This document shows positions 1 to 14,993 of a DNA stretch of 64,000 nt, in pieces (positions within the stretch are counted from its first letter, which is position 1; each line of letters starts with the position of its first letter). The DNA is taken from the NCBI GenBank assembly GCA_029212505.1, contig JARGOS010000006.1:24152-88151 (forward strand). The letters run 5' to 3'. Origin of the DNA: Legionellaceae bacterium. Its GTDB lineage: Bacteria; Pseudomonadota; Gammaproteobacteria; Legionellales; Legionellaceae. The notes below the pieces were generated by a model. It was not told the origin of the DNA, made no database searches, and saw only the letters and a list, made by a program, of their open reading frames with translations. The translations under genes were made by a program, and so were the position numbers.

Positions 1-2942
1 TCCGCATCACCCAGTAAGACAAGGTGGTCATCTAACGTGTCTATAGCGACATTTTTAGTCCACGAAGGCATGGTGTAACTGGATAAAAGTTCACCTGTAA
101 ATTTATGAAAGAAAAAGCAACTGGCTTCAGTTTGTGTTGAATAAGTAGCACCACACGCAATGATTTTGTCGTTGAGGCTAACCAAATCATAGGCATAGTT
201 TTTAATGCGGCTATCGCCAATCATGGCTGACCAATCAAGTACGGCATCAAGTGTTGGTATGCTTGTGGACGGCCATGCACTGGGTTCGCTGGTAGGGTCG
301 CCTGTGGGTAGCCACGTGGGCTCACCTGTGGGTCCAGCGCTTGGGATCCAGGTTGGGTTGCTTGAAGGCTCGCTGGTCGGTTCGCTTGTAGGCCATCCCG
401 TCGGTCCTGCTGTGGGATACCCACTGGGTAATTCTGAAGGTTCAGATGTTGGGTAGCCACTGGGCTCGGATGTTGGGTAACTGGTCGGCCATGCACTGGG
501 TCCTGCTGTAGGATACCCACTGGGTAATTCCGAAGGTTCAGATGTTGGGTAGCCACTGGGCTCAGATGTTGGGTAGCCACTGGGCTCAGATGTTGGGTAG
601 CTGGTCGGCCATGCACTGGGTTCCGCGGTCGGATCACCGGTGGGTAGCCATGTGGGCTCACCTGTGGGTCCAGCGCTTGGGATCCAAGTTGGGTTGCTTG
701 AAGGCTCGCTGGTCGGTTCGCTTGTTGGCCATCCCGTCGGTCCTGCTGTGGGATACCCACTGGGTAATTCTGAAGGTTCAGATGTTGGGTAGCCACTGGG
801 CTCGGATGTTGGGTAACTGGTCGGCCATGCACTGGGTTCGCTGGTAGGGTCGCCTGTGGGTAGCCACGTGGGCTCACCTGTGGGTCCAGCGCTTGGGATC
901 CAGGTTGGGTTGCTTGAAGGCTCGCTGGTCGGTTCGCTTGTAGGCCATCCCGTCGGTCCTGCTGTGGGATACCCACTGGGTAATTCTGAAGGTTCAGATG
1001 TTGGGTAGCCACTGGGCTCGGATGTTGGGTAACTGGTCGGCCATGCACTGGGTTCGCTGGTAGGGTCGCCTGTGGGTAGCCACGTGGGCTCACCTGTGGG
1101 TCCAGCGCTTGGGATCCAGGTTGGGTTGCTTGAAGGCTCGCTGGTCGGTTCGCTTGTAGGCCATCCCGTCGGTCCTGCTGTGGGATACCCACTGGGTAAT
1201 TCTGAAGGTTCAGATGTTGGGTAGCCACTGGGCTCGGATGTTGGGTAACTGGTCGGCCATGCACTGGGTTCGCTGGTAGGGTCGCCTGTGGGTAGCCACG
1301 TGGGCTCACCTGTGGGTCCAGCGCTTGGGATCCAGGTTGGGTTGCTTGAAGGCTCGCTGCTAGGTTCGCTTGTTGGCCATGCACTCGGTCCTGCTGTGGG
1401 AGATCCACTGGGTAATTCCGAAGGTTCGGATGTTGGGTAGCCACTGGGCTCAGATGTTGGATAAGAGGTAGGCCATGCACTGGGTTCGCTGGTAGGGTCG
1501 CCTGTTGGCGTAACACTTGGGTCCGACGAAGGGTAACCACTGGGCATGGCGGAAGGCCAGCTGCTCGGCCAGGCGCTGGGCGATGCCGTTGGAAAACCTG
1601 TAGGGTTACCACTTGGATTGCTACTCGGTGAGTTGGTTGATAAAAACTCAGCTGTAAGTGGGTGTGTTACCGTAATTTCATCTGTAATATCAGTGAAGTT
1701 GGTGATTAAGGTGACATCGATAGGAGTGATGCTGCCAGTAATATCATGATTAATGATGCCGGCATTATAATTAATGGTAAAATCATTTGTAACGCTATAA
1801 AAGCTTAATCCTGAGGGGATATCAGAATCGTCAAGGGTGAAATCGGGGCCAAATTTAACGGTCATGAATTTATCCTTGTTAAAATCGCCGTTGTAACTTC
1901 TAGTCGTACCTGTGTTAACAACTTGGCCCTTTTTGTCTGTGGCTGCTGCTTTAAAAAAATCCAATTGAGTTCCGGCAAGCATTTCTACATCTTGTCCGTT
2001 GAACACGATAGAACCTCTACTACCAGGCGAGCTTGTTAGGCTAAATCCAGCCGCTACAAATTGATTATCGACAAAAGAACCGCTAAAAAAAGAAGTTGTG
2101 CTACTACCCTCAAGTGTTGTTACATTTAAAGTGCTTCCAGTTGTAGCATTTAATTGCAGTATGACACCGTTGTTATCTAAGTTCCCGACGGCAAATAGAA
2201 TGTCGTTTTTTTTGTGAATAGAATTAATTTGGCACTTAATATTAATGCTTGATTGTAATTCTCGAGCCCAGATTAAACCCCCATTATTATCAATTTTTGC
2301 GACAAAAGATTCGCTTGGGCTTCTACTGATGAAACCGCTCGTAACATAATTTTTATCATCCGTTTCTAAGATAGCGGTTAGCGAAACAGTGTCTGATATG
2401 GGGTATTGGTATCTGAATTTTGATGTGCCGTTGGGATAAATACTCATAACCACGGCATCTTTGCCGGCCAGGACTAATGTGTTGTCACTTGAAGCAAGTA
2501 TACCCGAAAATTCAGTAGCTTCTGGTAGCCCACTTAATTCAAAACTATTAAGTAAGGTGCCATTTAACGTTGTGCCACATAAAAACCCATGGGTTATTCC
2601 TTCCTTGATGATGTGACCTGTAGAAAAAGCAGTCTCATTATACCAAGCCGAACCCTGAAAATAAGTGCTTGTACCGGCGGCAACTTGGATATTACTTGTA
2701 AGTTCACCATCGGAGTTTAATACGATAACCTCGCCATCATAATTGGGATGTCCTCTATTATGGTTTCCGGATGCAATAATTGATCCGTCATCAGCGAACG
2801 TTATGCTTACCCCCGCATCTTTTTCATTAAGTCTCCCCTGAAGACTTACCCAGGAATTGGAATTTGATTGGCTGCTTGTTGTTTTTGGCAATAAAGCAAG
2901 CAATCCTAATGCGATTTTTTTTGATGCGCCAAAAAAATCCAT
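1..2942 (-). CDS. Secreted-type beta-propeller-like protein with PT/PS repeats, 3' end outside window
   Basis: The minus strand is open from an ATG at 2942-2940 to the window edge (980 codons, no stop), so the C-terminus lies outside. An AAGGAA box sits about 8 nt before the start. The N-terminus has Lys-Lys then a hydrophobic run (IALGLLALLP), a possible signal peptide. Residues about 30-430 are Gly/Asn/Asp/Thr-rich short strands with recurring 'GxxxNNGxxxxL' style segments, like bacterial beta-propeller or FG-GAP/delta-60 proteins. Residues about 435-900 are a tetrapeptide array of the type xPTS/xPSx (SEPSGYPTSEP and variants). A second propeller-like segment (DLVSLNDKIIACGATYST) begins after it. 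The family is not firmly recognised. The array resembles low-complexity stalks of algal and oomycete surface proteins. I infer an exported or surface protein with two folded parts joined by a stiff Pro-rich linker. Confidence 0.8.
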   Translation of the reverse strand, partial: MDFFGASKKIALGLLALLPKTTSSQSNSNSWVSLQGRLNEKDAGVSITFADDGSIIASGNHNRGHPNYDGEVIVLNSDGELTSNIQVAAGTSTYFQGSAWYNETAFSTGHIIKEGITHGFLCGTTLNGTLLNSFELSGLPEATEFSGILASSDNTLVLAGKDAVVMSIYPNGTSKFRYQYPISDTVSLTAILETDDKNYVTSGFISRSPSESFVAKIDNNGGLIWARELQSSINIKCQINSIHKKNDILFAVGNLDNNGVILQLNATTGSTLNVTTLEGSSTTSFFSGSFVDNQFVAAGFSLTSSPGSRGSIVFNGQDVEMLAGTQLDFFKAAATDKKGQVVNTGTTRSYNGDFNKDKFMTVKFGPDFTLDDSDIPSGLSFYSVTNDFTINYNAGIINHDITGSITPIDVTLITNFTDITDEITVTHPLTAEFLSTNSPSSNPSGNPTGFPTASPSAWPSSWPSAMPSGYPSSDPSVTPTGDPTSEPSAWPTSYPTSEPSGYPTSEPSELPSGSPTAGPSAWPTSEPSSEPSSNPTWIPSAGPTGEPTWLPTGDPTSEPSAWPTSYPTSEPSGYPTSEPSELPSGYPTAGPTGWPTSEPTSEPSSNPTWIPSAGPTGEPTWLPTGDPTSEPSAWPTSYPTSEPSGYPTSEPSELPSGYPTAGPTGWPTSEPTSEPSSNPTWIPSAGPTGEPTWLPTGDPTSEPSAWPTSYPTSEPSGYPTSEPSELPSGYPTAGPTGWPTSEPTSEPSSNPTWIPSAGPTGEPTWLPTGDPTAEPSAWPTSYPTSEPSGYPTSEPSGYPTSEPSELPSGYPTAGPSAWPTSYPTSEPSGYPTSEPSELPSGYPTAGPTGWPTSEPTSEPSSNPTWIPSAGPTGEPTWLPTGDPTSEPSAWPSTSIPTLDAVLDWSAMIGDSRIKNYAYDLVSLNDKIIACGATYSTQTEASCFFFHKFTGELLSSYTMPSWTKNVAIDTLDDHLVLLGDA
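245..1640 (-). repeat. Tandem array of 216-bp units coding for PT/PS tetrapeptides
   Basis: The sequence repeats with a 216-bp period (72 residues = 18 tetrapeptides). For example, the same GGCCATGCACTGGGTTCGCT block recurs at about 823, 1039 and 1255, and a related unit is at 271-487. Neighbouring units are almost identical at the DNA level, so the array is recent and probably variable in copy number. The coding frame is on the minus strand. Because the basic unit is 12 nt with few A/T-rich codons, other frames also stay open by accident. Confidence 0.9.
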
Positions 2943-3184
2943 ATGTAAGTTCCTTAATGTTGGACTATTGTACATTTCCTGGGTGTTTTTTTCTTTTTCC
3001 CCTTACCTTGATGTATTTTCTGGTTGGGAATTGGTCAGTATGGATGTATGCTGAAGTGAAAACGACCCACTTAAGTGGTTGTATTGTACATTATTTAATC
3101 TTTAATGCAATAGGCGAAAGCGTGAATTGATTGAATACAAGGCATTTTTGCTTTTTAGTTTGCGTATTATGTTATCTTTTGTAT

Positions 3185-3313
3185 TTAACTGATTGTTCCG
3201 CTAGTATTTTCCGGATTACTAGTGGTGTCACCGTTTTTGGGCTGAATTTTTTCAAGCTCTATAAGCTTAGGAGTAACATAATTTTTATTCTCGGATGTTT
3301 CGTTGTTATCCAT
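3185..3313 (-). CDS. Candidate lasso-type RiPP precursor peptide (42 aa)
   Basis: This short gene was found by reading the minus strand just downstream of the B2 gene. It codes for 42 residues starting MDNNETSENK. Residues 12-20 are YVTPKLIEL, matching the YxxPxL leader motif that PqqD-type recognition elements (B1) bind in lasso precursors. The tail (residues 25-42) is Ser/Thr/Asn/Gly-rich and ends in Ile-Ser. An AAGGA box lies 12 nt before the ATG, slightly far. The usual Gly and the Thr at position -2 of lasso leaders are not obvious, so the cleavage site cannot be placed. The C-terminal Ser matters because lasso-cluster HPr-kinase-like enzymes phosphorylate a C-terminal Ser in paeninodin-type peptides. 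Its position behind B2, and the kinase, recognition protein and exporter nearby, support the call. That it is a substrate is inference. Confidence 0.6.
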   Translation of the reverse strand: MDNNETSENKNYVTPKLIELEKIQPKNGDTTSNPENTSGTIS

Positions 3314-3411: not shown

Positions 3412-3903
3412 TTATAAAGCGTTCTCTAGCAGAAGTTGTTTAGATGCATAACTAGAAACAACTTTAAAACTTGTAAAACTATGTTGGCCCGTAATAGCGA
3501 CAGGTCCTGCGGTAAGCCAAGCGTGCGATGCATACCCACTGGGTTTATCAGCATTTTTTGTAAAACCAATGTATAAGATATACGGGATATTTAAGCAGGA
3601 ACACCAAAACTTGGCGACCATGGCCTGCGTTAAGCAATTAGAATCCCAGGGCGTGTATTTTGCGGTGAGTGCAATGGAACGACGTAATTGAATGGCGTGA
3701 TTGCGTTGCTGAGGCGTAATTATGGTTGAGAACATAATATTTTTATGAAGTGTACCAAAATAGGGGGTGAGGTATTTTAAGGGAAAGAGATTGATAAAAG
3801 CACGTGCGATGCCACAGAGCATAAAGTTGATGACAAACAGGCATTTTAATTTAAAACGCATGTTTAAAAAAACATGAGTTTTTCTTTTGAGTACAGCGAT
3901 CAT
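3412..3903 (-). CDS. Lasso peptide biosynthesis B2 protein (leader peptidase, transglutaminase-like)
   Basis: 163 residues, the usual size of a stand-alone B2 protein. B2 proteins are cysteine proteases of the transglutaminase/McjB-C fold that remove the leader from lasso-type precursors together with the B1 recognition protein. Visible hallmarks are the Cys region (DSNCLTQAMVAKFWC), the GIPYxLYIGF-like strand (NIPYILYIGF), and the His motif SHAWLTAGPVAITG. The third member of the triad (Asp) is not clear. The N-terminus has a hydrophobic stretch (CLFVINFMLCGIARAFINLF) that may associate with the membrane. The gene precedes the 42-residue precursor candidate on the same strand. Its divergent partners (HPr-kinase-like gene onward) are now 4.3 kb away because a cassette sits between them. 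The first codons are duplicated near 8190-8232. Confidence 0.85.
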   Translation of the reverse strand: MIAVLKRKTHVFLNMRFKLKCLFVINFMLCGIARAFINLFPLKYLTPYFGTLHKNIMFSTIITPQQRNHAIQLRRSIALTAKYTPWDSNCLTQAMVAKFWCSCLNIPYILYIGFTKNADKPSGYASHAWLTAGPVAITGQHSFTSFKVVSSYASKQLLLENAL

Positions 3904-3986
3904 AATAAAATCCTTTTTGATAAATATTCTTTATGAAAATAGGTGTGTTTGCAAGCGCTAAGTTTGCAAAGGAGGTGTTTTTTCAG
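3863..3986. repeat. Direct repeat, left copy, flanking the RT/TA cassette
   Basis: About 124 bp, matched with few changes by 8192-8318. It spans the first codons of the B2 gene (minus strand), the B2/RT intergenic region and the first 17 codons of the RT reading frame. The shared core includes CTTTTTGATAAATATTCTTT and the following ATGAAAATAGGTG. The two copies bracket the reverse transcriptase, hicAB and hipBA in the same orientation. Confidence 0.85.
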
Positions 3987-5144
3987 TACGCTCATTTATT
4001 AATAAAGGGATTTGATCAAACCGTGGGAAATGGGTTGAGCAACAATACGATATCAACATATCAGGTTTCGATTGAAACCATGCTATCCGACGAGGTTTTA
4101 GAATACGCGTATGTATGGGCGTGTAAACAACGTATGAACCGTTCGCATAATAATAGCATTTGGGACCTGAGGTTTAACTGGAAGCTTGAAAAAGAGCGTT
4201 TGAAATCGCAAGTTAAAAAAAATACCTATACCCTCTCACCCCTGCGACGTTATGTGATAAACGGTGAGTCTGTCGCAAGTTGGGATGCTCTTGATTCGAT
4301 ACTGCTTAAAGCGTTGAGTATCACCTTACAATCATTGTTTTCTAACCAAGCTTATCCAGATTGCACCCATTTAAAAGAAGGTGGGGGTATTCATCGTGCA
4401 CTTCAGCACGTCAACGACAATAAGGCGTGTTATCAACATATTTTAAAAAGCGATGCTTACCAATATTATGATTCAATGGACCATGATGTATTATTGGATG
4501 CTTTAAAAGAAAAAATCAGTTGCCCTGGCTTGCTTCGACTTGTTACTCAATATTGCGAGCGGGTTGAAATACGCGATGGTCATTATTTCCATTTTACGCG
4601 AGGCATTCCAAAAGGCTGTCCTTTATCGCCTTTAATGGCGGCACTGTATTTAAAACCTCTTGATGTGCTAAGTCGTTATGGATGCTATGTCAGGTTTATG
4701 GATGACTGGGTTATTATGGTAAAAACCAAGCATCAGTTGCGTAAGGTCATCAAGTTAACCCATCAAATATTAAATAAATTAAAACTCAAAATGCATCCCG
4801 ATAAAACATTTATTGGGCGTATAAAAAAAGGTTTTGATTTTTTAGGGGTGTATTGTGGTGATATTCCCAAAATTTCAGAAGTAACCCATGAAAAACATCG
4901 TGCTAAACTAGCCCAGCGTTACGCGCAAGGTGCAAGCGAAGCTTGCATTGGTGCCTATATAGAACGATGGACATCGTGGTGTATAAGTGTATTACGCAGT
5001 TGTTGTGGTGGGACCAAAACTTTTTATCAATCCGTGGAGGCCCTGAGGTCCCAATGTAAACAGCCTCCGGATATAAATCAGGAGCACGTTTATGAAGGAC
5101 ATCAAAACACAACCTGTCGTGGACGAACGTTCGTCTTCGACTAA
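3933..5144 (+). CDS. Group II-intron-like reverse transcriptase, unassigned class
   Basis: 403 residues if started at 3933. RT motifs are clear: the motif A region around residues 172-188 (SDAYQYYDSMDH), GIPKGCPLSPLMAALYL (224-240), the catalytic RFMDDW (254-259), and HPDKTF followed by KGFDFLG (288-305). There is no maturase/X or HNH domain after the RT core, and no domain V-like hairpin was seen, so this is not an ordinary group II intron protein. The class with RFMDDWV and FIGRIxxGFDFLG is common in proteobacteria, but I cannot assign its role. Related proteins usually begin near the internal MLSDEVLEYAY (ATG at 4080, 354 residues). The first 17 codons here lie inside the direct repeat, so the N-terminus may be a chimera created by insertion. 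Possible roles are a retroelement or a defence RT. Confidence 0.85.
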   Translation: MKIGVFASAKFAKEVFFQYAHLLIKGFDQTVGNGLSNNTISTYQVSIETMLSDEVLEYAYVWACKQRMNRSHNNSIWDLRFNWKLEKERLKSQVKKNTYTLSPLRRYVINGESVASWDALDSILLKALSITLQSLFSNQAYPDCTHLKEGGGIHRALQHVNDNKACYQHILKSDAYQYYDSMDHDVLLDALKEKISCPGLLRLVTQYCERVEIRDGHYFHFTRGIPKGCPLSPLMAALYLKPLDVLSRYGCYVRFMDDWVIMVKTKHQLRKVIKLTHQILNKLKLKMHPDKTFIGRIKKGFDFLGVYCGDIPKISEVTHEKHRAKLAQRYAQGASEACIGAYIERWTSWCISVLRSCCGGTKTFYQSVEALRSQCKQPPDINQEHVYEGHQNTTCRGRTFVFD

Positions 5145-5298
5145 AAGCTGCAGAACTTATACGCCGCCGACGCTGGTATCGCTTAACCGCGAAGGGCCTG
5201 GGGCTAACGGCGAACCGCATCGAAGCGCTGCCCTGCCAGCACGACTCGGGGCGCGGCGAGCCCTCAATCGATTTGCTAGCCCACGGGCCACCTGCTGA
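5092..5298 (+). CDS. Small ORF after the RT with a YxxPxL-like motif, doubtful
   Basis: 68 codons with a good AGGAG box 7 nt before the ATG, overlapping the RT 3' end in another frame. Residues 23-31 read YTPPTLVSL, the same Y..P.L..L spacing as YVTPKLIEL in the 3185-3313 peptide. The remainder is Arg/Ala-rich and not core-like. The segment from 5145 is much richer in G+C than its surroundings, and two other frames also stay open through it. It may instead be the conserved, perhaps structured, 3' part of the RT element. It could be a second, degraded precursor, but confidence is low. Confidence 0.3.
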   Translation: MKDIKTQPVVDERSSSTKSCRTYTPPTLVSLNREGPGANGEPHRSAALPARLGARRALNRFASPRATC

Positions 5299-5350
5299 CA
5301 ACGGGACCACAGCTAATACGAGGGTACATGGGGACAGCGCCGACGCGAAC
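5122..5350. other. GC-rich segment following the RT
   Basis: By eye this stretch is around 60% G+C, against about 40% on either side. It starts with a perfect 14-nt palindrome (GACGAACGTTCGTC, 5122-5135) and holds several GC-rich short inverted runs (CGCCGCCGACGC, GGGGCGCGGCGAGCCC). An arginine-rich frame (RRRRWYRLTAKGLGLTANR) stays open on the plus strand beyond the RT stop, but without a clear start. This may be the RNA or 3' part of the RT element. From 5351 to 5570 I see no gene and no clear signal. Confidence 0.4.
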
Positions 5351-8189: not shown

Positions 8190-8232
8190 AATTTAAAAAT
8201 AGATGTGTTTTTCTTTTGATGACAGCTATCAT
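8190..8232 (-). pseudogene. Remnant of the B2 gene 5' end
   Basis: Minus strand from 8232 reads MIAVIKRKTHLFLN, nearly the same as the intact B2 start MIAVLKRKTHVFLN. It then loses all similarity. It is a duplicated fragment left at the right end of the inserted cassette. Confidence 0.75.
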
Positions 8233-8318
8233 TAAAAGTCCTTTTTGATAAATATTCTTTATGAAAATAGGTGTTTTTGCAAGCGCTACGTTTGCAAAGG
8301 AGGTGTTTTTTTATTCAG
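8192..8318. repeat. Direct repeat, right copy
   Basis: Matches 3863-3986 in the same orientation. On the plus strand it includes an ATG at 8261 followed by KIGVFASATFAKEVFF, one residue different from the RT N-terminus at 3933. Here the frame continues for only 42 codons to a stop. Downstream lies the HPr-kinase-like gene. The remaining gap to 8472 contains only the candidate promoter below. Confidence 0.85.
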
Positions 8319-8472: not shown

Positions 8473-9387
8473 ATGTATCTTTACCATGCGTTTGGATTAA
8501 ACATTCAAAGCGCACTTAACCTACCGGAATTATTGGCTTGTCCAAATAACACTAATATTAATCCCGATGTGACCATTCAGTTTGGGGATGTTGCCAAAAC
8601 AGGTTTATCAGAAGTGATGGCTGGTGGCGCATTTTATCAAGCCAATCATGATGAACTTTGGCTCGATGTACCCAACGTTGCACGTTATCTCATAACCCAT
8701 GGCAATTGCATCACGATAGATCCGTATGAACAAGCGGACGAAGACAGCATTCGGGTATTTTTGCTTGGCTCCGGTATGGGGGCATTGTTGATGCAACGCG
8801 ATTTGTTTTTATTGCATGCGAATGCGATTAAAATGGGTGATGCCTGTGTTTCGTTTTCAGGAAACTCGGGGGCGGGAAAATCAACTTTATCAGCGGCCTT
8901 TATGCGTCGTGGTTACTCGGTGCTTGCCGATGATGTGTGCGCGGTTAACCAAGCGGGGCAAGTGATGCCAAGCTTCCCTCACGTTAAATTATGGGCAGAC
9001 TCAAGCTATAAATTAGAGATTAAAACGGATGAGCTTAGACGCATTCGGCCAAAGATCGAAAAATTCGCCGTGCCGCTTAATCAGCAGTTTTATTCAGCCA
9101 ACTTGCCGTTGAAAGTTTTGTATATTTTAAACTCGCATAATCAAGAGACGTTTGAATTTGAAGCGATTGAAGGCATGCATAAAATGCTGCCACTTAAAAA
9201 TAATACGTATCGTTCTCAGTATTTAAAAGGCTTAGGTAAAACCAAAAAGCATTTAAAACATGTTGGCAGTTTAGCCTCACAGGTGGATGTGGTACGTATC
9301 ACACGGCCTCGCGCTGGGTTTCAGCTGGATGAGCTGGTGGATTTAATACAAAAAGATTTGTTAGAGCGAGGCGTGGTCGGTGTCTGA
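8473..9387 (+). CDS. HPr-kinase-like protein of a lasso-type RiPP cluster
   Basis: 304 residues. The N-terminal beta-rich domain (FGLNIQSALNLPEL) and the HPrK C-terminal P-loop fold are visible: FSGNSGAGKSTLSAAF (Walker A, about residues 128-143) then SVLADDVCAV with the acidic pair. Stand-alone proteins of this type occur in lasso clusters, where PadeK/ThcoK enzymes phosphorylate the C-terminal Ser of the precursor. Here the candidate precursor ends in Ser. GGACGGAG provides a strong ribosome-binding site. It is the first gene of a tightly packed operon and overlaps the sulfotransferase by 8 nt. Confidence 0.85.
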   Translation: MYLYHAFGLNIQSALNLPELLACPNNTNINPDVTIQFGDVAKTGLSEVMAGGAFYQANHDELWLDVPNVARYLITHGNCITIDPYEQADEDSIRVFLLGSGMGALLMQRDLFLLHANAIKMGDACVSFSGNSGAGKSTLSAAFMRRGYSVLADDVCAVNQAGQVMPSFPHVKLWADSSYKLEIKTDELRRIRPKIEKFAVPLNQQFYSANLPLKVLYILNSHNQETFEFEAIEGMHKMLPLKNNTYRSQYLKGLGKTKKHLKHVGSLASQVDVVRITRPRAGFQLDELVDLIQKDLLERGVVGV

Positions 9388-10225
9388 ACAGAAAGGAATT
9401 TATTGGCTTGCGTCGTATCCCAAATCAGGCAATACGTGGTTTCGTGTTTTTTTGGCGCATATGCTGGCTGAATCGGATGAAGGTTTAGATTTAGATAGTA
9501 TTCATACCGGAGCGATTGCCAGTGGGCGAGGCTGGATAGATGAAGCCCTGGGGTTTGATAGCGCGAATTTCACGCATGATGATTTAGATGCCCTGCGACC
9601 TGCGGTTTATCGATGGCATGCCGAGCAAGCAACCACAGCCGAGCATCATAAAACGCATGATGCCTACACCTATTTACCGAATGGCGAAGCGTTGATTCCT
9701 GCTCAACACTCACTGGGTGCTGTCTATTTTGTACGTAATCCTTTAGATGTCGCCGTATCGTTTGCCAATCATATGAATTGCTCAATTGATAAGAGCATTG
9801 AGTCGATGCGACAACCTGATTTTTCGTTCTGTAAAGGTAATAAAAAATTGCACGATCAATTACGACAGCAATTATTATCGTGGTCGATGCATGTCAAAAG
9901 CTGGTGTGAGGCAAAAGACATGAATTGCCTGGTGTTGCGATATGAAGACATGAAGCAAGAGCCGATGGAGACGTTTACGCGTGCAGCAAATTATTTGAAG
10001 CTGGATACGTCTGAACAACGAATTCAGCGAGCATTAGAGCACGCGCATATTGATCGCTTGCAAAATTTAGAGCAATCGGATGGATTTAAAGAAAAGCCGC
10101 CCAAAGTGAAGCAGTTTTTTAGAAAAGGTATGGTCGGTGATTGGAAGAACGTACTGACCTCAAAGCAAATTGACACGATTATTCATGATCATGGTGAGGT
10201 GATGGCGACCCATGGTTATATTTAA
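9380..10225 (+). CDS. PAPS-dependent sulfotransferase
   Basis: 281 residues, GTG start overlapping the previous stop. It transfers sulfate from PAPS to a hydroxyl or amine. The 5'-phosphosulfate loop is YPKSGNTW (residues 13-20). The 3'-phosphate motif is FVRNPLDVAVSFANHMN. VLRYEDMKQEP and the terminal FFRKGMVGDWKN (RKGxxGDWKN) are also present, so all cofactor motifs of the sulfotransferase-1 family are there. A PAPS-forming enzyme is three genes downstream. The acceptor is probably the RiPP product, since the gene lies between the kinase and the recognition protein, but the acceptor cannot be read from the sequence. Confidence 0.9.
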   Translation: MSEQKGIYWLASYPKSGNTWFRVFLAHMLAESDEGLDLDSIHTGAIASGRGWIDEALGFDSANFTHDDLDALRPAVYRWHAEQATTAEHHKTHDAYTYLPNGEALIPAQHSLGAVYFVRNPLDVAVSFANHMNCSIDKSIESMRQPDFSFCKGNKKLHDQLRQQLLSWSMHVKSWCEAKDMNCLVLRYEDMKQEPMETFTRAANYLKLDTSEQRIQRALEHAHIDRLQNLEQSDGFKEKPPKVKQFFRKGMVGDWKNVLTSKQIDTIIHDHGEVMATHGYI

Positions 10226-10264
10226 TGGTTATATTGATATAGATATATTTAGGAGCGGGATAGC

Positions 10265-10531
10265 ATGCTAGCAATTAATCAAGATGTGGTGTTTACACAA
10301 ATCGATGAAGATATCGTGATGATGGATCCAAATTCTGGGGAATATCATGGCCTAAATACAGTAGGGGCTGAGCTCTGGAATGCTTTGGATGAAAAACCGA
10401 TGAACCATGATGATATGGTGAGCTACTTACAAAAAGAATATGCGCTTGACGAGCAAACCGCGACAACGGATGTTGGAGCGTTTGTCGATGCGTTGCTAGC
10501 AAAAGAATTTCTTGTGGTGACTGCGGATTAA
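10265..10531 (+). CDS. PqqD family RiPP recognition protein (lasso B1-like)
   Basis: 88 residues forming the PqqD winged-helix recognition element: the beta hairpin DEDIVMMDPNSGEYHGLN, then VGAELWNALDEK, then a helical half ending in VDALLAKEFLVV. B1 proteins bind the YxxPxL leader and pass the precursor to the B2 protease and tailoring enzymes. An AGGAGCGGG box precedes the ATG. The ABC gene follows after 1 nt. Confidence 0.88.
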   Translation: MLAINQDVVFTQIDEDIVMMDPNSGEYHGLNTVGAELWNALDEKPMNHDDMVSYLQKEYALDEQTATTDVGAFVDALLAKEFLVVTAD

Positions 10532-10532
10532 A

Positions 10533-12299
10533 ATGGGCTTTAATCTAAGCAATCTTCGTGTATTAAGCTGTTTGTTGCGCGACCTTTTTAAATTTGATGC
10601 CCGACGTTCAAGTATGACGTTGTGTTTGATGTTTTTAAAAAGTGTGACATCGGGCGTTGGACTGCTGCTTATTTTACCGCTCTTGCAGCTGATTGGTATT
10701 TCGTTAGGGGCAGTAGCGAGTCAAGGGATACTCACCCAATTTAATGCAATGCTTGATCACTTGCATATTCCCATGACGTTGGTGAGTGTACTTGCTGTAT
10801 ATACCGTGATGATAAGTTTGATTGCGCTGCTTGCTTATGTAGAGCAAGTGATGGGAGTAGTCCTGCAACAAAGCTACACGCGCTACCTACGTGCAAGCTT
10901 GCATCGAACGCTACTGATGACCCCATGGTCCTTTTTTTTAAAGCGTAAAATGTCAGATGTGTTGTACAGCTTGACCACGCAAGTGCAAGGGGTGGCTACG
11001 TGTAATTATCAGTTATTAAGTTTGATTAATACGCTGTTTCTTGTGATGGTGTACACGGGCCTTGCCTGTTTGCTCTCTTGGAAAATGACCATGGCGGCCA
11101 TGGGGTGTGCTTTGCTTTTGCTATGCCTGATGCTGCCGTTGCATCGTCTCACATCCAAAGCAGGACGAGACCACTTGCATAAAAATCAATGCATATTCCA
11201 AGCGATTCAGGAGCAATTTTCCGCGCTTAAAATGCTCAAAGGCTCAGGGCTTGAAACACGCTTTATCGATAAGCTTGTAGATGTGAATGCGTCACTTGAA
11301 TATCAAAATCAACGTGTGACTGTGATGACGGCGCGAAGCCGTTTGGTGTATACCTGTGGTTCGGTCATGGTATTGAGTGCGTTGCTCTATTTAGCCATCG
11401 GGGTGATGCATATGCCGCCCGCAAGCTTATTATTGCTTTTGATTGTGTTTGCACGTACGTTACCCATGGTATCAACGGCTCAACAAACGTATCAACGTAT
11501 TTTACATCAATTGCCAGCGTATCTTGGTATCCAAGGCTTAGTACAAGCATGTCAAGTGGAGCAAGTTTTATCTCAGCCAACTGTCCAGACCGTAAAATTT
11601 GAATCACAGATAGAATTTAACTCAGTCAGTTTTGCCTATCCAGCCAAGCCAGATACGTATATTATTCACCATCTTTCGTTAAAACTTACTAAAAATAGCA
11701 CGACGGCTTTCATCGGCCCATCTGGTGCAGGAAAATCGACGTTAGCGGATTTAATGGTAGGTTTGCTTACACCAAGCTCAGGAGAAATTTATATTGATGG
11801 AATGCGATTGGATGCCTCCAATCATACAGCTTGGCAGCGTCATATTGCTTATGTAACCCAAGATGTTTTCTTATTTCATGCCTCGGTACGTGATAATTTA
11901 ACTTGGTTTGGTCATGATGATTATACAGACGACGCACTTTGGCAGGTATTAAAGGCGGCTTCTGCTGATTTTGTGCATGATTTAGATGAAGGACTCGATA
12001 CGATACTGGGCGATCGCGGTGTGCGTTTATCTGGCGGCGAACGTCAACGTATTGCGCTTGCACGTGCGTTATTGATGAAACCAAAATTATTGGTATTAGA
12101 CGAAAGCACGAATGCACTCGATACCCAAAATTTAAAGCATATCCAAGCCGCACTCGCGGCCTTACGCGGTACCATGACCATCGTGATTATTTCACATCAA
12201 GAGGGTATGTGGGCGTTTGCCGATCAAAAAATTAAACTTCAAGCGAGAGAGAAAAAAAGCCATGCATTATTGGACGTTAAGCAAGCGGCAGCAGTGTGA
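10533..12299 (+). CDS. ABC exporter (lasso D-like, fused membrane and ATPase domains)
   Basis: 588 residues. About six membrane helices in residues 25-330 are followed by a nucleotide-binding domain with Walker A GPSGAGKST (about 394), signature LSGGERQRIALARALL and Walker B KLLVLDEST. This is the layout of McjD-type exporters that pump out the mature peptide and give self-immunity. There is no N-terminal C39 peptidase domain, consistent with B2 doing leader removal. Its 3' end overlaps the next gene. Confidence 0.88.
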   Translation: MGFNLSNLRVLSCLLRDLFKFDARRSSMTLCLMFLKSVTSGVGLLLILPLLQLIGISLGAVASQGILTQFNAMLDHLHIPMTLVSVLAVYTVMISLIALLAYVEQVMGVVLQQSYTRYLRASLHRTLLMTPWSFFLKRKMSDVLYSLTTQVQGVATCNYQLLSLINTLFLVMVYTGLACLLSWKMTMAAMGCALLLLCLMLPLHRLTSKAGRDHLHKNQCIFQAIQEQFSALKMLKGSGLETRFIDKLVDVNASLEYQNQRVTVMTARSRLVYTCGSVMVLSALLYLAIGVMHMPPASLLLLLIVFARTLPMVSTAQQTYQRILHQLPAYLGIQGLVQACQVEQVLSQPTVQTVKFESQIEFNSVSFAYPAKPDTYIIHHLSLKLTKNSTTAFIGPSGAGKSTLADLMVGLLTPSSGEIYIDGMRLDASNHTAWQRHIAYVTQDVFLFHASVRDNLTWFGHDDYTDDALWQVLKAASADFVHDLDEGLDTILGDRGVRLSGGERQRIALARALLMKPKLLVLDESTNALDTQNLKHIQAALAALRGTMTIVIISHQEGMWAFADQKIKLQAREKKSHALLDVKQAAAV

Positions 12300-13926
12300 T
12301 CTTGAGTGCTTATTAAACGGCGCTTTTGCACCGTTGAATGGTTTTTTAGATGAAGATGATTATGACAGCGTGTGTGACACCATGCGCCTGCAAGATGGCC
12401 GCTTGTGGCCTATGCCCATCACACTTGATGTGCCTCAAGCGTTTGCTGAGCAGTGCGTTTTAGGGGATGAAATTGTCTGCGTGGATGATGAAAATACGCC
12501 CTTGGCAAGCTTAAAAATAAGTTCTCTATGGCAACCCAATAAAGACCGAGAAGCGCTGCAGGTGTTTGGAACAAACGATAAGCTTCATCCGGGTGTGAAA
12601 TATTTATATGATGAAGCGGGTGCTTGGTATATTGGCGGGCGCGTGACAGCGCTGTCTACGCCCGTGCATTATGATTTTCTTCAGTATCGGCACACGCCTG
12701 CAGAGTTAAAGCAATTATTTAAGCTCTACGGTTGGTCACGCGTGCTCGCTTTTCAAACGCGTAACCCGATTCATCGCGCGCATTTTGAATTAACACAACG
12801 CGCGGCGCGTAAGGCCAATGCAAACTTATTGATTCATCCGGTTGTTGGCATGACTAAGCCTGGCGATATTGATTATGTTTTACGTGTTAAATGCTATGAG
12901 CATGTGATCAAGCGCTACCCGAGCACGCAGCACGCGATGTTGAGTTTGCTACCGTTGGCGATGCGCATGGGTGGGCCGCGTGAAGCGGTGTGGCACGCCA
13001 TCATTCGTAAAAATTATGGGGCGACTCATTTTATTGTGGGGCGTGACCATGCGGGGCCTGGAAATAACAGCCAAAATCAAGCGTTCTATGAGCCTTATGC
13101 GGCGCAAACGCTTTTGCTTGCCCATGCAGACGAAATTGAATTAAATATCATGGCATCTCCGGCGATTGTTTATGTTAAGCAAAAACAGGCTTTTTTGAGT
13201 ACCGATGAGCTGAGTGCGGATGATGTGGTTGAAAATATTTCAGGAACGGCCTTGCGGCAGGCACTGCAATATCGAAAACAGCTTCCGGAGTGGTTTTCGT
13301 TTCCTGAAGTGATTCAAACCCTACAAGCAGCCTACCCGCCCAAGCATGAACAAGGCTTTGCCTTATTTTTCACAGGATTATCGGGTGCAGGAAAATCAAC
13401 ACTGGCTAAAGCGGTGCAAGCAAGATTGTTGGAGGACAATCGCCGTCACGTGAGTTTATTGGATGGTGATGTGGTGCGCCATCATTTATCAGCAGGACTT
13501 GGTTTTTCAAAAAAAGACAGAGATACAAATATTCATCGCTTAGGCTATGTTGCGTCTGAGATTACCAAACATCAAGGCATTGCAATTTGTGCGGCCATAG
13601 CGCCTTATGCCGAGGCACGTCGCCGTGCGCGAATGCAAATTGAACAATACGGGGGCTTTATTGAGATTTATGTCGCAGCAGATATCAATGTATGTAAATC
13701 ACGTGATGTCAAAGGCTTGTATCAAAAAGCAGAAGCGGGCTTAATCACAGGATTTACAGGTGTAGACGATCCGTATGAAATACCCAATAATCCTGAATTA
13801 GTTATTGATACGGCTCATCTATCGATTGTGGAGGCTGTTGATATGATTTTTGATGCATTAAAGCATTTAGGGTTTTATGAGGAAGCTAAAATTGCTAATA
13901 ACATCACGATCGAGGCCCTGGTGTGA
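12262..13926 (+). CDS. Bifunctional sulfate adenylyltransferase / adenylylsulfate kinase (PAPS synthase)
   Basis: About 554 residues from ATG 12262. A longer TTG start at 12217 is less likely. Residues about 1-365 are a Sat-type ATP sulfurylase: FQTRNPIHRAHFE, HPVVGMTKPGDID, MRMGGPREAVWHAIIRKNYG, GRDHAGPG. Residues about 370-554 are an APS kinase: GLSGAGKSTLAKAV (P-loop), LLDGDVVRHHL, GLGFSKKDRDTNI, AICAAIAPY. Together they turn sulfate and two ATP into PAPS, the donor for the sulfotransferase three genes upstream. It overlaps the ABC gene by 38 nt. That it is embedded in a RiPP operon rather than among cys genes argues for dedicated donor supply. Confidence 0.9.
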   Translation: MHYWTLSKRQQCDLECLLNGAFAPLNGFLDEDDYDSVCDTMRLQDGRLWPMPITLDVPQAFAEQCVLGDEIVCVDDENTPLASLKISSLWQPNKDREALQVFGTNDKLHPGVKYLYDEAGAWYIGGRVTALSTPVHYDFLQYRHTPAELKQLFKLYGWSRVLAFQTRNPIHRAHFELTQRAARKANANLLIHPVVGMTKPGDIDYVLRVKCYEHVIKRYPSTQHAMLSLLPLAMRMGGPREAVWHAIIRKNYGATHFIVGRDHAGPGNNSQNQAFYEPYAAQTLLLAHADEIELNIMASPAIVYVKQKQAFLSTDELSADDVVENISGTALRQALQYRKQLPEWFSFPEVIQTLQAAYPPKHEQGFALFFTGLSGAGKSTLAKAVQARLLEDNRRHVSLLDGDVVRHHLSAGLGFSKKDRDTNIHRLGYVASEITKHQGIAICAAIAPYAEARRRARMQIEQYGGFIEIYVAADINVCKSRDVKGLYQKAEAGLITGFTGVDDPYEIPNNPELVIDTAHLSIVEAVDMIFDALKHLGFYEEAKIANNITIEALV

Positions 13927-14993
13927 TGTGGAATGGGGCTGATGTATCAGCTGAAGAATTATGGATTCGTGCTATCTGTCGCTATGCTTTAGGGCATATG
14001 AGCGTGGCAAATTGTTTACCATATTTAGAGCATGCGATGGATGAAACGCATTGTTTGGATTTATTGCATGAGCATCGGTTATATTTATTGGTGTACCAGG
14101 TGCTTTCAAAAGATTTCGATGCGTATGTTGCACCGGATTTTATGCGTGTCTTGCAACAAAAATCGCAGCATATTCTAAAGCAGCAATTAGGCTTAATGCG
14201 TGTTTCAAAAGAACTTCATCATGCGTTTGAAGCGCATCAAATTGAACATATTTTTTTAAAGGGCCCGGCTTTAAATCAAATCTTATGGGGGCGACAGATG
14301 ATGCGTTATTCGGGTGATTTGGATCTATTAATTCAACCGAAAGATATTTTTAAAGCGGAGGCGGTGCTTCAAACATTAAAGTTTACGCATGCATTATCCC
14401 ATAAATTCATCCGAATACATCAAATCTTTCAGCGTTTAAGCATTAGAAAAGATGTGGTGTATCGACGAGCCGATCTGCCTCAGGCGTTGGAGCTGCATTG
14501 GAAAACAAGTGCTACAGAGTTTATTGTAACATCAAATAAGTCACTTCATTTAGCTGACGAAGAATACGCGCTTTATTTATGCTTACATGCTGCGAAACAT
14601 GGTTGGTCTAGACTTATATGGCTGGTTGATATCGTGGCGTTGATACAGGTAAAAAAAATAGATGTAGCGCGTTTACAAGTCTTGGCTAAAGCGTGTCATA
14701 TTGGTCCTGTTGTGGACGAGGCGATTCTTTTAGCTCAGCAATGGCTTGGTATTTCGCTTACCACAAGCGATGCATTTGAAAGGCTTAAAAAGCGCCGCGC
14801 ATGTTTACAAAAGCGTATTAAAATAGGGAAAATTCCGGCCAAAAATAATTGGATACGTACGTTTAGAAAAATTTATTATATGAATCATGTGTGCTCGAAT
14901 AGGTGGTGTCAGTTATGCTTATGGACACAAAATATTTTAGGAGCTATTGTTTCAAAATGCTTGTTATGTATGAGGAAAGAAAAAAATGCATGA
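13926..14993 (+). CDS. Nucleotidyltransferase family protein (NTP_transf_5 type)
   Basis: About 355 residues. A GTG at 13923 is an alternative start; either way it overlaps the preceding stop. The core IEHIFLKGPALNQILWG, then MMRYSGDLDLLIQPKDI, gives the Gly and the D-x-D metal site of the pol-beta-type transferase fold. A helical region (DEEYALYLCLHAAKHGWSRL) follows, as in the uncharacterised nucleotidyltransferases often found with lasso kinases. It could add a nucleotide or other phosphate-linked group to the peptide. No activity can be inferred beyond the fold. Confidence 0.8.
   Translation: MWNGADVSAEELWIRAICRYALGHMSVANCLPYLEHAMDETHCLDLLHEHRLYLLVYQVLSKDFDAYVAPDFMRVLQQKSQHILKQQLGLMRVSKELHHAFEAHQIEHIFLKGPALNQILWGRQMMRYSGDLDLLIQPKDIFKAEAVLQTLKFTHALSHKFIRIHQIFQRLSIRKDVVYRRADLPQALELHWKTSATEFIVTSNKSLHLADEEYALYLCLHAAKHGWSRLIWLVDIVALIQVKKIDVARLQVLAKACHIGPVVDEAILLAQQWLGISLTTSDAFERLKKRRACLQKRIKIGKIPAKNNWIRTFRKIYYMNHVCSNRWCQLCLWTQNILGAIVSKCLLCMRKEKNA

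What the first reader, a model, noticed from the sequence alone, without database searches (positions are those of the whole stretch)
3185..3313. Unannotated 42-residue RiPP precursor with YxxPxL leader motif and a Ser/Thr-rich tail
Seen: a minus-strand gene directly behind a B2-type leader peptidase gene, with YVTPKLIEL at residues 12-20 and an 18-residue Ser/Thr/Asn/Gly-rich tail ending in Ser. Known: PqqD-like B1 proteins of lasso clusters recognise YxxPxL, and HPr-kinase-like enzymes phosphorylate C-terminal Ser in paeninodin-type peptides. Inference: this is the substrate of the operon at 8473-14993. It lacks the usual Gly and the Thr at -2, so the cleavage and product may differ from known lasso peptides.
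Basis: partly seen in the sequence, partly recalled or inferred. Interest (0 to 1): 0.85.

Follow-up and report, generated by a model that had tools for sequence, protein, structure and literature searches.

The report
Scattered sulfated lasso-peptide family, Legionellaceae
A 42-residue gene in an apparent uncultured relative of Legionella belongs to a family of short peptide precursors scattered over the genome, which are predicted to be tied into lasso rings and likely phosphorylated and sulfated by one shared set of enzymes; in sister genera some of these genes sit beside a gene that a retroelement appears to mutate and whose protein may be the peptide's partner.

Summary
The ORF is real and is a predicted lasso-type precursor. 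A profile of 35 relatives, realigned without it, ranks it first of 907 window ORFs (29.9 bits; best of 10 shuffled windows 8.3). Of 36 aligned precursors, 17 have a lasso-type cyclase within 3.5 kb, 9 a B1/B2/kinase/sulfotransferase gene and 11 an Lcl_C gene. Predicted core: GDTTSNPENTSGTIS, Gly1-Glu8 ring. The window holds no cyclase; the one lasso-type cyclase found is on contig C19. The genome has one B2, one close kinase, one sulfotransferase and four precursors on three contigs, so maturation likely works in trans. The operon's sulfotransferase and PAPS synthase (in 6 of 9 such operons read) predict a sulfated, phosphorylated lasso peptide. In two sister genera precursor and cyclase precede a diversity-generating retroelement that varies the Lcl_C gene (15/17, 12/13, 11/16 changes at template A). 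Lcl of L. pneumophila is published to bind sulfated glycans; that the peptide is its neighbour's ligand is speculation. Nothing chemical was tested.

The parts
3185..3313 (-). precursor gene A: leader residues 1-27, predicted core 28-42 GDTTSNPENTSGTIS, Gly28 = core 1, Glu35 = core 8, Ser42 = predicted phospho-acceptor
3412..3903 (-). B2 leader peptidase (Transglut_core3 / lasso_biosyn_B2; Cys90 in CLTQA, His127 in HAW)
   Evidence: one full copy per genome in the 7 genus genomes
8473..9387 (+). HprK-like kinase K, Walker A GNSGAGKS at residue 130; the only one found in this genome at E 1e-8
9380..10225 (+). PAPS-type sulfotransferase ST, YPKSGN at residue 13; one hit per genome (E 1e-20) in 7 of 7 genus genomes
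10265..10531 (+). B1, PqqD-like RiPP recognition element; closest solved relative TbiB1
10533..12299 (+). ABC transporter (membrane plus ATPase domains), predicted exporter
12217..13926 (+). bifunctional ATP sulfurylase / APS kinase (PAPS synthase); real start likely inside this ORF
   Evidence: (PRK05537, 818 bits against a cut-off of 669)
13923..14993 (+). NTP_transf_5 nucleotidyltransferase-like protein; sugar transfer as proposed for PsmN is only an analogy
   Evidence: PMC9266682 passages
1..2975 (-). start of a 1662-aa repeat protein (PTSEPS-type repeats) with an N-terminal stretch like a signal peptide (by eye), next gene behind the precursor; runs off the window

Best explanation
[quoted passage not shown] Steps: (1) B1 would bind YVTPKL (inferred from motif and TbiB1 kinship); (2) the kinase would phosphorylate Ser42 of the linear precursor (inferred from paeninodin-type kinases and the near-invariant terminal Ser); (3) B2 would cut K-N|G (inferred from alignment); (4) the lasso-type cyclase at G000:C19:228466-230031, the only one found, would form the Gly1-Glu8 isopeptide (inferred; it carries SAGLDS and SGFGGD motifs); (5) the sulfotransferase, fed by the operon's own PAPS synthase, would add sulfate, and the nucleotidyltransferase-like protein perhaps a sugar (inferred, site and order unknown); (6) the ABC transporter would export it. 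The same set would serve three further precursors on contigs C2 and C20 in trans. Family homology, copy numbers and gene neighbourhoods are shown; every chemical step is untested.
For: Leave-one-out score. Homologs directly upstream of cyclase genes. Tyr, Glu and terminal Ser in 36 of 36 and Gly in 35 of 36; Tyr at -16 in 28 of 36; ring 7 (25), 8 (10) or 6 (1). 56 of 59 further database homologs end in Ser. One B2, one kinase, one sulfotransferase and four precursors in this genome. Sulfotransferase gene next to the kinase gene in 11 of 13 neighbourhoods looked at (20 genomes have a hit). Sulfotransferase in 12 of 18 genomes with a precursor hit and 8 of 75 without. Own cyclase: best NCBIfam model is the lasso cyclase NF033535. 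Among the 31 family genomes common, all 11 with B2 also have a precursor hit (12 have one; 1.4e-7 by hypergeometric count, ignoring relatedness).
Against: No cyclase in the window; own C scores 113.5 bits against NF033535's cut-off of 525, and B1 50.8 against 80. Thr(-2) is absent. The place directly behind B2 is not conserved: G004, with 88% identical B2, lacks the precursor there. The core tail NTSGTIS has no bulky plug residue, so a threaded knot may not hold. Sulfotransferase homologs also occur without lasso genes in the two g2 genomes read (G007, G081); 6 of 18 genomes with a precursor hit lack it (G010, G018, G030, G061, G094, G108; the last two hits carry stops); PAPS synthase is absent from 3 of 9 sulfotransferase operons read. 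B1 copy number was not counted, and distant kinases may have been missed. Tyr/Pro invariance is partly by construction, as the first members were found by that motif.
Confidence: 0.62

Rival explanations
1. The precursor is matured by B1/B2/kinase/sulfotransferase alone into a linear, phosphorylated and sulfated peptide; no ring is made because the cyclase belongs to other precursors.
For: No cyclase near it in the window; 19 of 36 precursors have no cyclase within 3.5 kb in the sequence held, though many of those stretches end sooner.
Against: Gly1 and Glu8 are kept as in relatives directly beside a cyclase; this genome keeps an open-framed lasso-type cyclase with ATP-site motifs.
Confidence: 0.14
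2. Lasso maturation is right but the sulfotransferase and PAPS synthase act on something else (for example a surface sugar or an exported partner protein) and only share the operon.
For: Homologous sulfotransferases without lasso genes in G007 and G081; 6 of 18 genomes with a precursor hit have no sulfotransferase hit, and 3 of 9 operons with it lack PAPS synthase.
Against: In 11 of 13 neighbourhoods looked at, in four genera (g1, g3, g8, g50), the gene lies next to the lasso-type kinase; a sulfotransferase gene was also noted in some Firmicutes lasso clusters (PMC8498205 passage).
Confidence: 0.3
3. The ORF is a dead or chance leftover, not expressed.
For: Absent behind B2 in the nearest relative; no expression data.
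Against: Leader motif, Gly, Glu and terminal Ser all intact; score far above shuffles.
Confidence: 0.06

Closest known systems
Paeninodin-type and other kinase-tailored lasso peptides
   Same: HprK-like kinase and C-terminal Ser (PMC8498205 passages); B1/B2 split (abstract listing of PMC5067487, and recall)
   Different: no Thr(-2), cyclase and precursors apart from the B/kinase genes, several precursors per maturation set, added sulfotransferase and PAPS synthase
BsfA lasso precursor of Bradymonas sediminis (PMC10368454, abstract and passages)
   Same: kinase-tailored, YxxPxL leader, core Gly1, non-Thr residue at -2, acidic residue at core 8
   Different: Ile(-2) there, Lys here (mostly Glu, Ala or Gln in the family); Ser3 is phosphorylated there, the terminal Ser is the likely site here; Asp8 there, Glu8 here
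Pseudomycoidin (PsmK/PsmN; PMC9266682 passages)
   Same: kinase plus a nucleotidyltransferase-like protein
   Different: sulfotransferase and PAPS synthase present here; relation of the NTP_transf_5 protein to PsmN not tested
Diversity-generating retroelements with DUF1566/Lcl_C targets (PMC4159848 passages)
   Same: template-A-biased changes in the 3' end of an Lcl_C gene, RT with GLPIGN(F/L)TSQ
   Different: here placed directly behind a lasso precursor-cyclase pair; seen at three loci in two sister genera, not in the window's genus

Membership tests
lasso peptides | leader YxxPxL motif read by a B1/RRE protein | tested here: met
   YVTPKL at residues 12-17; Tyr in 36 of 36 (partly by construction); B1 related to TbiB1. 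Binding itself not tested
lasso peptides | Gly (or similar) at core 1 and Asp/Glu at core 7-9 | tested here: met
   Gly28 and Glu35, ring 8; family 7-8 in 35 of 36, 6 in one
lasso peptides | Thr at leader -2 | tested here: not met
   Lys; family Glu 18, Ala 6, Gln 5, Ser 3, Lys 2, Gly 1, Thr 1 of 36. Not treated as defining: Ile(-2) is proven in BsfA
lasso peptides | B2 protease and B1 genes | tested here: met
   NF033537 over cut-off; PqqD PF05402 over cut-off, lasso-specific B1 models below cut-off
lasso peptides | asparagine-synthetase-like cyclase C | tested here: inconclusive
   present but on another contig, C19:228466-230031; PF00733 over cut-off, NF033535 best but below its cut-off
lasso peptides | threaded isopeptide knot | not testable with these tools
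   needs MS/NMR
kinase-tailored (paeninodin-type) lasso peptides | HprK-like kinase with Walker A, and C-terminal Ser in the substrate | tested here: met
   GNSGAGKS; Ser42; 36 of 36 and 56 of 59 end in Ser; Hpr_kinase_C itself is below Pfam's cut-off (23.7 against 33.3)
kinase-tailored (paeninodin-type) lasso peptides | phosphorylation of that Ser | not testable with these tools
   needs an assay
HPr-rel-A system (TIGR04352/TIGR04353) | both models over their cut-offs | tested here: not met
   33.5 bits against 200, and 28 against 35
diversity-generating retroelement (relatives only) | TR/VR pair with changes at template A, beside a DGR-type RT | tested here: met
   L035 15/17, L090 12/13, L137 11/16; not in the window genus: 0 of 7 genomes at 1e-30

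The most novel reading that the evidence does not exclude
Legionellaceae run a trans-acting lasso factory: one B1/B2/kinase/sulfotransferase/PAPS-synthase set makes phospho-sulfo lasso peptides from several precursors scattered over the genome, and each peptide is the ligand of the secreted, often Lcl_C-type, protein encoded beside its precursor. Lcl_C is a fold whose L. pneumophila member binds sulfated glycans, and in sister genera its end is hypermutated by a diversity-generating retroelement in the same gene row, so that a bacterial hypervariable receptor is paired with its own sulfated peptide knot.
Probability: 0.18. Interest if true: 0.92.

Novelty: new variant of a known kind. Interest (0 to 1): 0.68.

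Why it matters
Lasso peptides are usually described as compact clusters with one or a few precursors in place (general knowledge); a scattered precursor set served by one maturation operon changes how they must be mined, and the public homologs found here carry no functional name (65 of 65, the window's own included, unnamed or 'hypothetical protein'). A sulfotransferase with its own PAPS supply makes a sulfated lasso peptide a direct prediction; I saw none in the listings and passages. The link to Lcl_C proteins and to a diversity-generating retroelement (no paper held contains both 'lasso peptide' and 'diversity-generating retroelement') would give such retroelements a possible self-made ligand, testable by simple binding.

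Tried and rejected
(1) 'No cyclase, so not a lasso': rejected after the own-genome search found a lasso-type cyclase on C19. The four strongest Asn-synthase hits (C6 and C19:357-372k) lie among sugar-nucleotide and glycosyltransferase-like genes by eye and begin at or near MCGI, so were read as ordinary amidotransferases. (2) Window RT (3933-5144) as part of the system, because a 55-57% identical RT lies directly behind B1 in G010:C7: rejected as lasso-specific. Of the 8 genomes with such an RT at 1e-30, five others were read at one locus each (G003, G030, G064, G082, G011; 4-11 kb) and none shows lasso genes there; G079 was not read. It is an RT_UG4 type. (3) Window RT as the mutagenic RT of a local diversity-generating retroelement: rejected; the 121-base direct repeat shows no A bias. 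(4) G004 B2 as broken: rejected, its stop is at the natural end. (5) Precursor beside each sister B2: motif searches in the B2 loci mostly failed, because the precursors lie elsewhere. (6) Paper search on unlinked lasso precursors gave noise; one search likewise. Limits: the genome search was fully used (12 of 12), so B1 copy number per genome was not counted; no structure prediction and no B1-leader complex was run.

Rows left out of alignment A2 (36 rows): G024 L034:881-1090 (in A1; ends in Ser, lacks the Gly); an identical second copy of L133 (L120, G008:C16); the G002:C59 hit (stop in frame); G005:C88, G005:C48 and G003:C87 hits (found later); hits with stops in G108, G094 and G005:C77 and the weak hit G002:C75; low-scoring ORFs L020:10601-10747, L083:2157-2234 and window 5092-5298. 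L036, L083:3809, L086 and L089 were added from the motif scans. The neighbour families other than Lcl_C, cyclase, B1, B2, K and ST were defined after seeing the neighbours and are not used as evidence.

Full report
What was checked. The ORF is at the stated place with the stated sequence. B2 (3903-3412) precedes it on the same strand. The operon on the other strand reads kinase, sulfotransferase, B1, ABC transporter, ATP sulfurylase/APS kinase, nucleotidyltransferase-like protein. The window lies on contig C4 of an unnamed 1.95-Mb genome; the nine named contigs with a related B2 are MAGs titled Legionellaceae, Legionellales or Gammaproteobacteria bacterium.

Is it a gene? A profile of 35 relatives, realigned without the window sequence, ranks it first of 907 window ORFs, 29.9 bits, E 2.1e-8; ten shuffled windows gave best scores of 2.6-8.3. 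Part of those relatives were found with the window sequence as first query. Against about 5.8 billion public proteins the 36-row profile finds 65 proteins at E 0.01 or better, six of them rows already in the alignment; none has a functional name.

The precursor family. Relatives were found by protein search in the genus, then by profile: 18 of 93 family genomes at E 0.1 (a few weak or with stops) and 7 of 7 genus genomes at E 0.01, with 1 to 5 hits each (own genome 4: C4 window, C2, and C20 twice, 85 kb apart). In the 36 aligned sequences Tyr, Glu and the terminal Ser are in all and Gly is kept in 35; the spacing from Tyr to Gly is 16 residues in 28; the Gly-to-Glu span is 7 in 25, 8 in 10 and 6 in one. 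The residue at -2 is Lys here and Glu, Ala, Gln, Ser, Lys, Gly or Thr in the family; published lasso precursors mostly have Thr, with Ile(-2) proven in BsfA (PMC10368454, abstract and passages). Of 59 database homologs not already in the alignment 56 end in Ser; the three exceptions end in Phe, Ala and Leu, two of which look truncated or frame-shifted by eye.

Neighbourhoods. Within 3.5 kb, 17 of 36 precursors have a lasso-type cyclase, 11 an Lcl_C-domain protein and 9 a B2, kinase, B1 or sulfotransferase gene; many stretches held are shorter than that, so these are lower bounds. In the window the next gene behind the precursor encodes a 1662-aa repeat protein whose N-terminus looks like a signal peptide by eye. 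In the genus, 6 of 24 Lcl_C hits lie within 3.5 kb of a precursor hit, against 0.2 expected by chance, contig ends ignored; 18 do not. That hit list is incomplete: it misses the Lcl_C gene beside the G004 precursor (27.9 bits).

The maturation genes. In the genus each genome has one full B2 (G001 also a fragment) and one sulfotransferase hit (7 of 7). Kinases: one in five genomes, two in G003 and three in G005, the extra ones being 32-38% identical. This genome has one of each. Its cyclase, C19:228466-230031, is on another contig; best NCBIfam model NF033535 (113.5 bits, below its cut-off), with SAGLDS and SGFGGD motifs. In G005 and G006 a second, larger cyclase (615 aa; NF033535 291 bits for the G005 copy) and a following ~410-aa protein (an ATP-grasp in G005) lie directly behind B2. 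The B2-divergent operon order is kept in G001, G002 (without the ABC gene there), G005 and G006 and G003, and is colinear in L021 and L023. Of nine sulfotransferase operons read past B1 (own, L017-L021, L023, L033, L186) six have the PAPS synthase; L017, L033 and L186 do not. L187 and the G004 contig are too short to tell.

Sulfation. The sulfotransferase keeps the PAPS-binding YPKSGN motif and matches cytosolic-type sulfotransferases of known structure. Of 20 genomes with a homolog I looked at 13 neighbourhoods: 11 have it next to the kinase (G000-G006, G008, G059, G055, G013; G004 and G059 judged from coordinates), G007 and G081 do not; 7 were not looked at. It occurs in 12 of 18 genomes with a precursor hit and in 8 of the 75 without; G010 and G030 have precursors and B genes without it. 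A sulfotransferase gene at the start of some Firmicutes lasso clusters is mentioned in a review (PMC8498205, passages). A 2026 review shows no sulfated lasso peptide in the passages found for 'sulfat' and 'sulfotransf' (PMC13352647), and searches for lasso peptide with sulfotransferase or sulfated/PAPS listed none by title and abstract start (one search showed 8 of 610). This is a limited library.

Retroelement link. In G010 (two loci) and G055 the row is precursor, cyclase, Lcl_C gene, template repeat, RT. Template against variable repeat: 15 of 17, 12 of 13 and 11 of 16 differences are at template A, and the RT carries GLPIGN(F/L)TSQ, a DGR-type motif by recall. Two of these three Lcl_C matches are below Pfam's cut-off (26.5 and 23.8 against 34.9). 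The nine Lcl_C proteins aligned are 40-79% identical to the first row, with a variable end, and the own-genome copy matches the solved structure 8q4e (molecule name HbP1) at E 5.4e-8 (that 8q4e is the published Lcl domain is recalled). Lcl of L. pneumophila recognises sulfated glycosaminoglycans (PMC11162425, abstract and passages), and DUF1566 (Lcl_C) is the commonest annotated target domain in one survey of human-microbiome retroelements (PMC4159848, passages). No paper held has both 'lasso peptide' and 'diversity-generating retroelement'. The window genus has no such RT at 1e-30 (0 of 7), so for this genome the link rests on two Lcl_C-neighbouring precursors on C20.

Verdict. Shown: family, anatomy, copy numbers, neighbourhoods, A-biased variation in sister genera. 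Inferred: cleavage site, ring, phosphorylation, sulfation, trans service, partner binding.

Noticed in passing
L035:797-5691, L090:1161-6033, L137:6602-1765: Lasso precursor, cyclase, Lcl_C gene, template repeat and DGR-type RT in one row; most differences between variable and template repeats are at template A.
   Followed up: partly
window 3933-5144: RT of type RT_UG4 (304 bits); a 57% identical RT lies directly behind B1 in G010:C7, but the other relatives read are not near lasso genes.
   Followed up: partly
window 3863-3983 and 8192-8311: 121-base direct repeat (91%) holding the 5' end of B2 and its upstream region; it brackets an insert with RT, a HicB-like ORF and an Xre-like gene (labels by eye) and HipA. 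No A bias.
   Followed up: partly
L032:7721-8467 (G000:C19): The own cyclase gene has a partial copy of its first 34 codons about 0.7 kb upstream, bracketing two small ORFs that look like a toxin-antitoxin pair (label recalled); the same pattern as around B2.
   Followed up: no
window 5092-5298: 68-aa ORF with a second lasso-like leader, SCRTYTPPTLVSLN (14.1-14.7 bits), whose would-be core lies in an abrupt 67% GC stretch (5160-5300) and does not end in Ser; it overlaps the RT end. Possibly a precursor with a replaced core.
   Followed up: partly
L089:6856-7062 (G030): Cys-rich member ending KGCFIKESCCGLVGS, next to a B1 and a cyclase: possibly a disulfide-bearing lasso peptide.
   Followed up: no
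L017:10492-13571 and L020 (G005, G006): B2 followed by a second, larger lasso-type cyclase and a ~410-aa protein (ATP-grasp in G005); no precursor found close by.
   Followed up: partly
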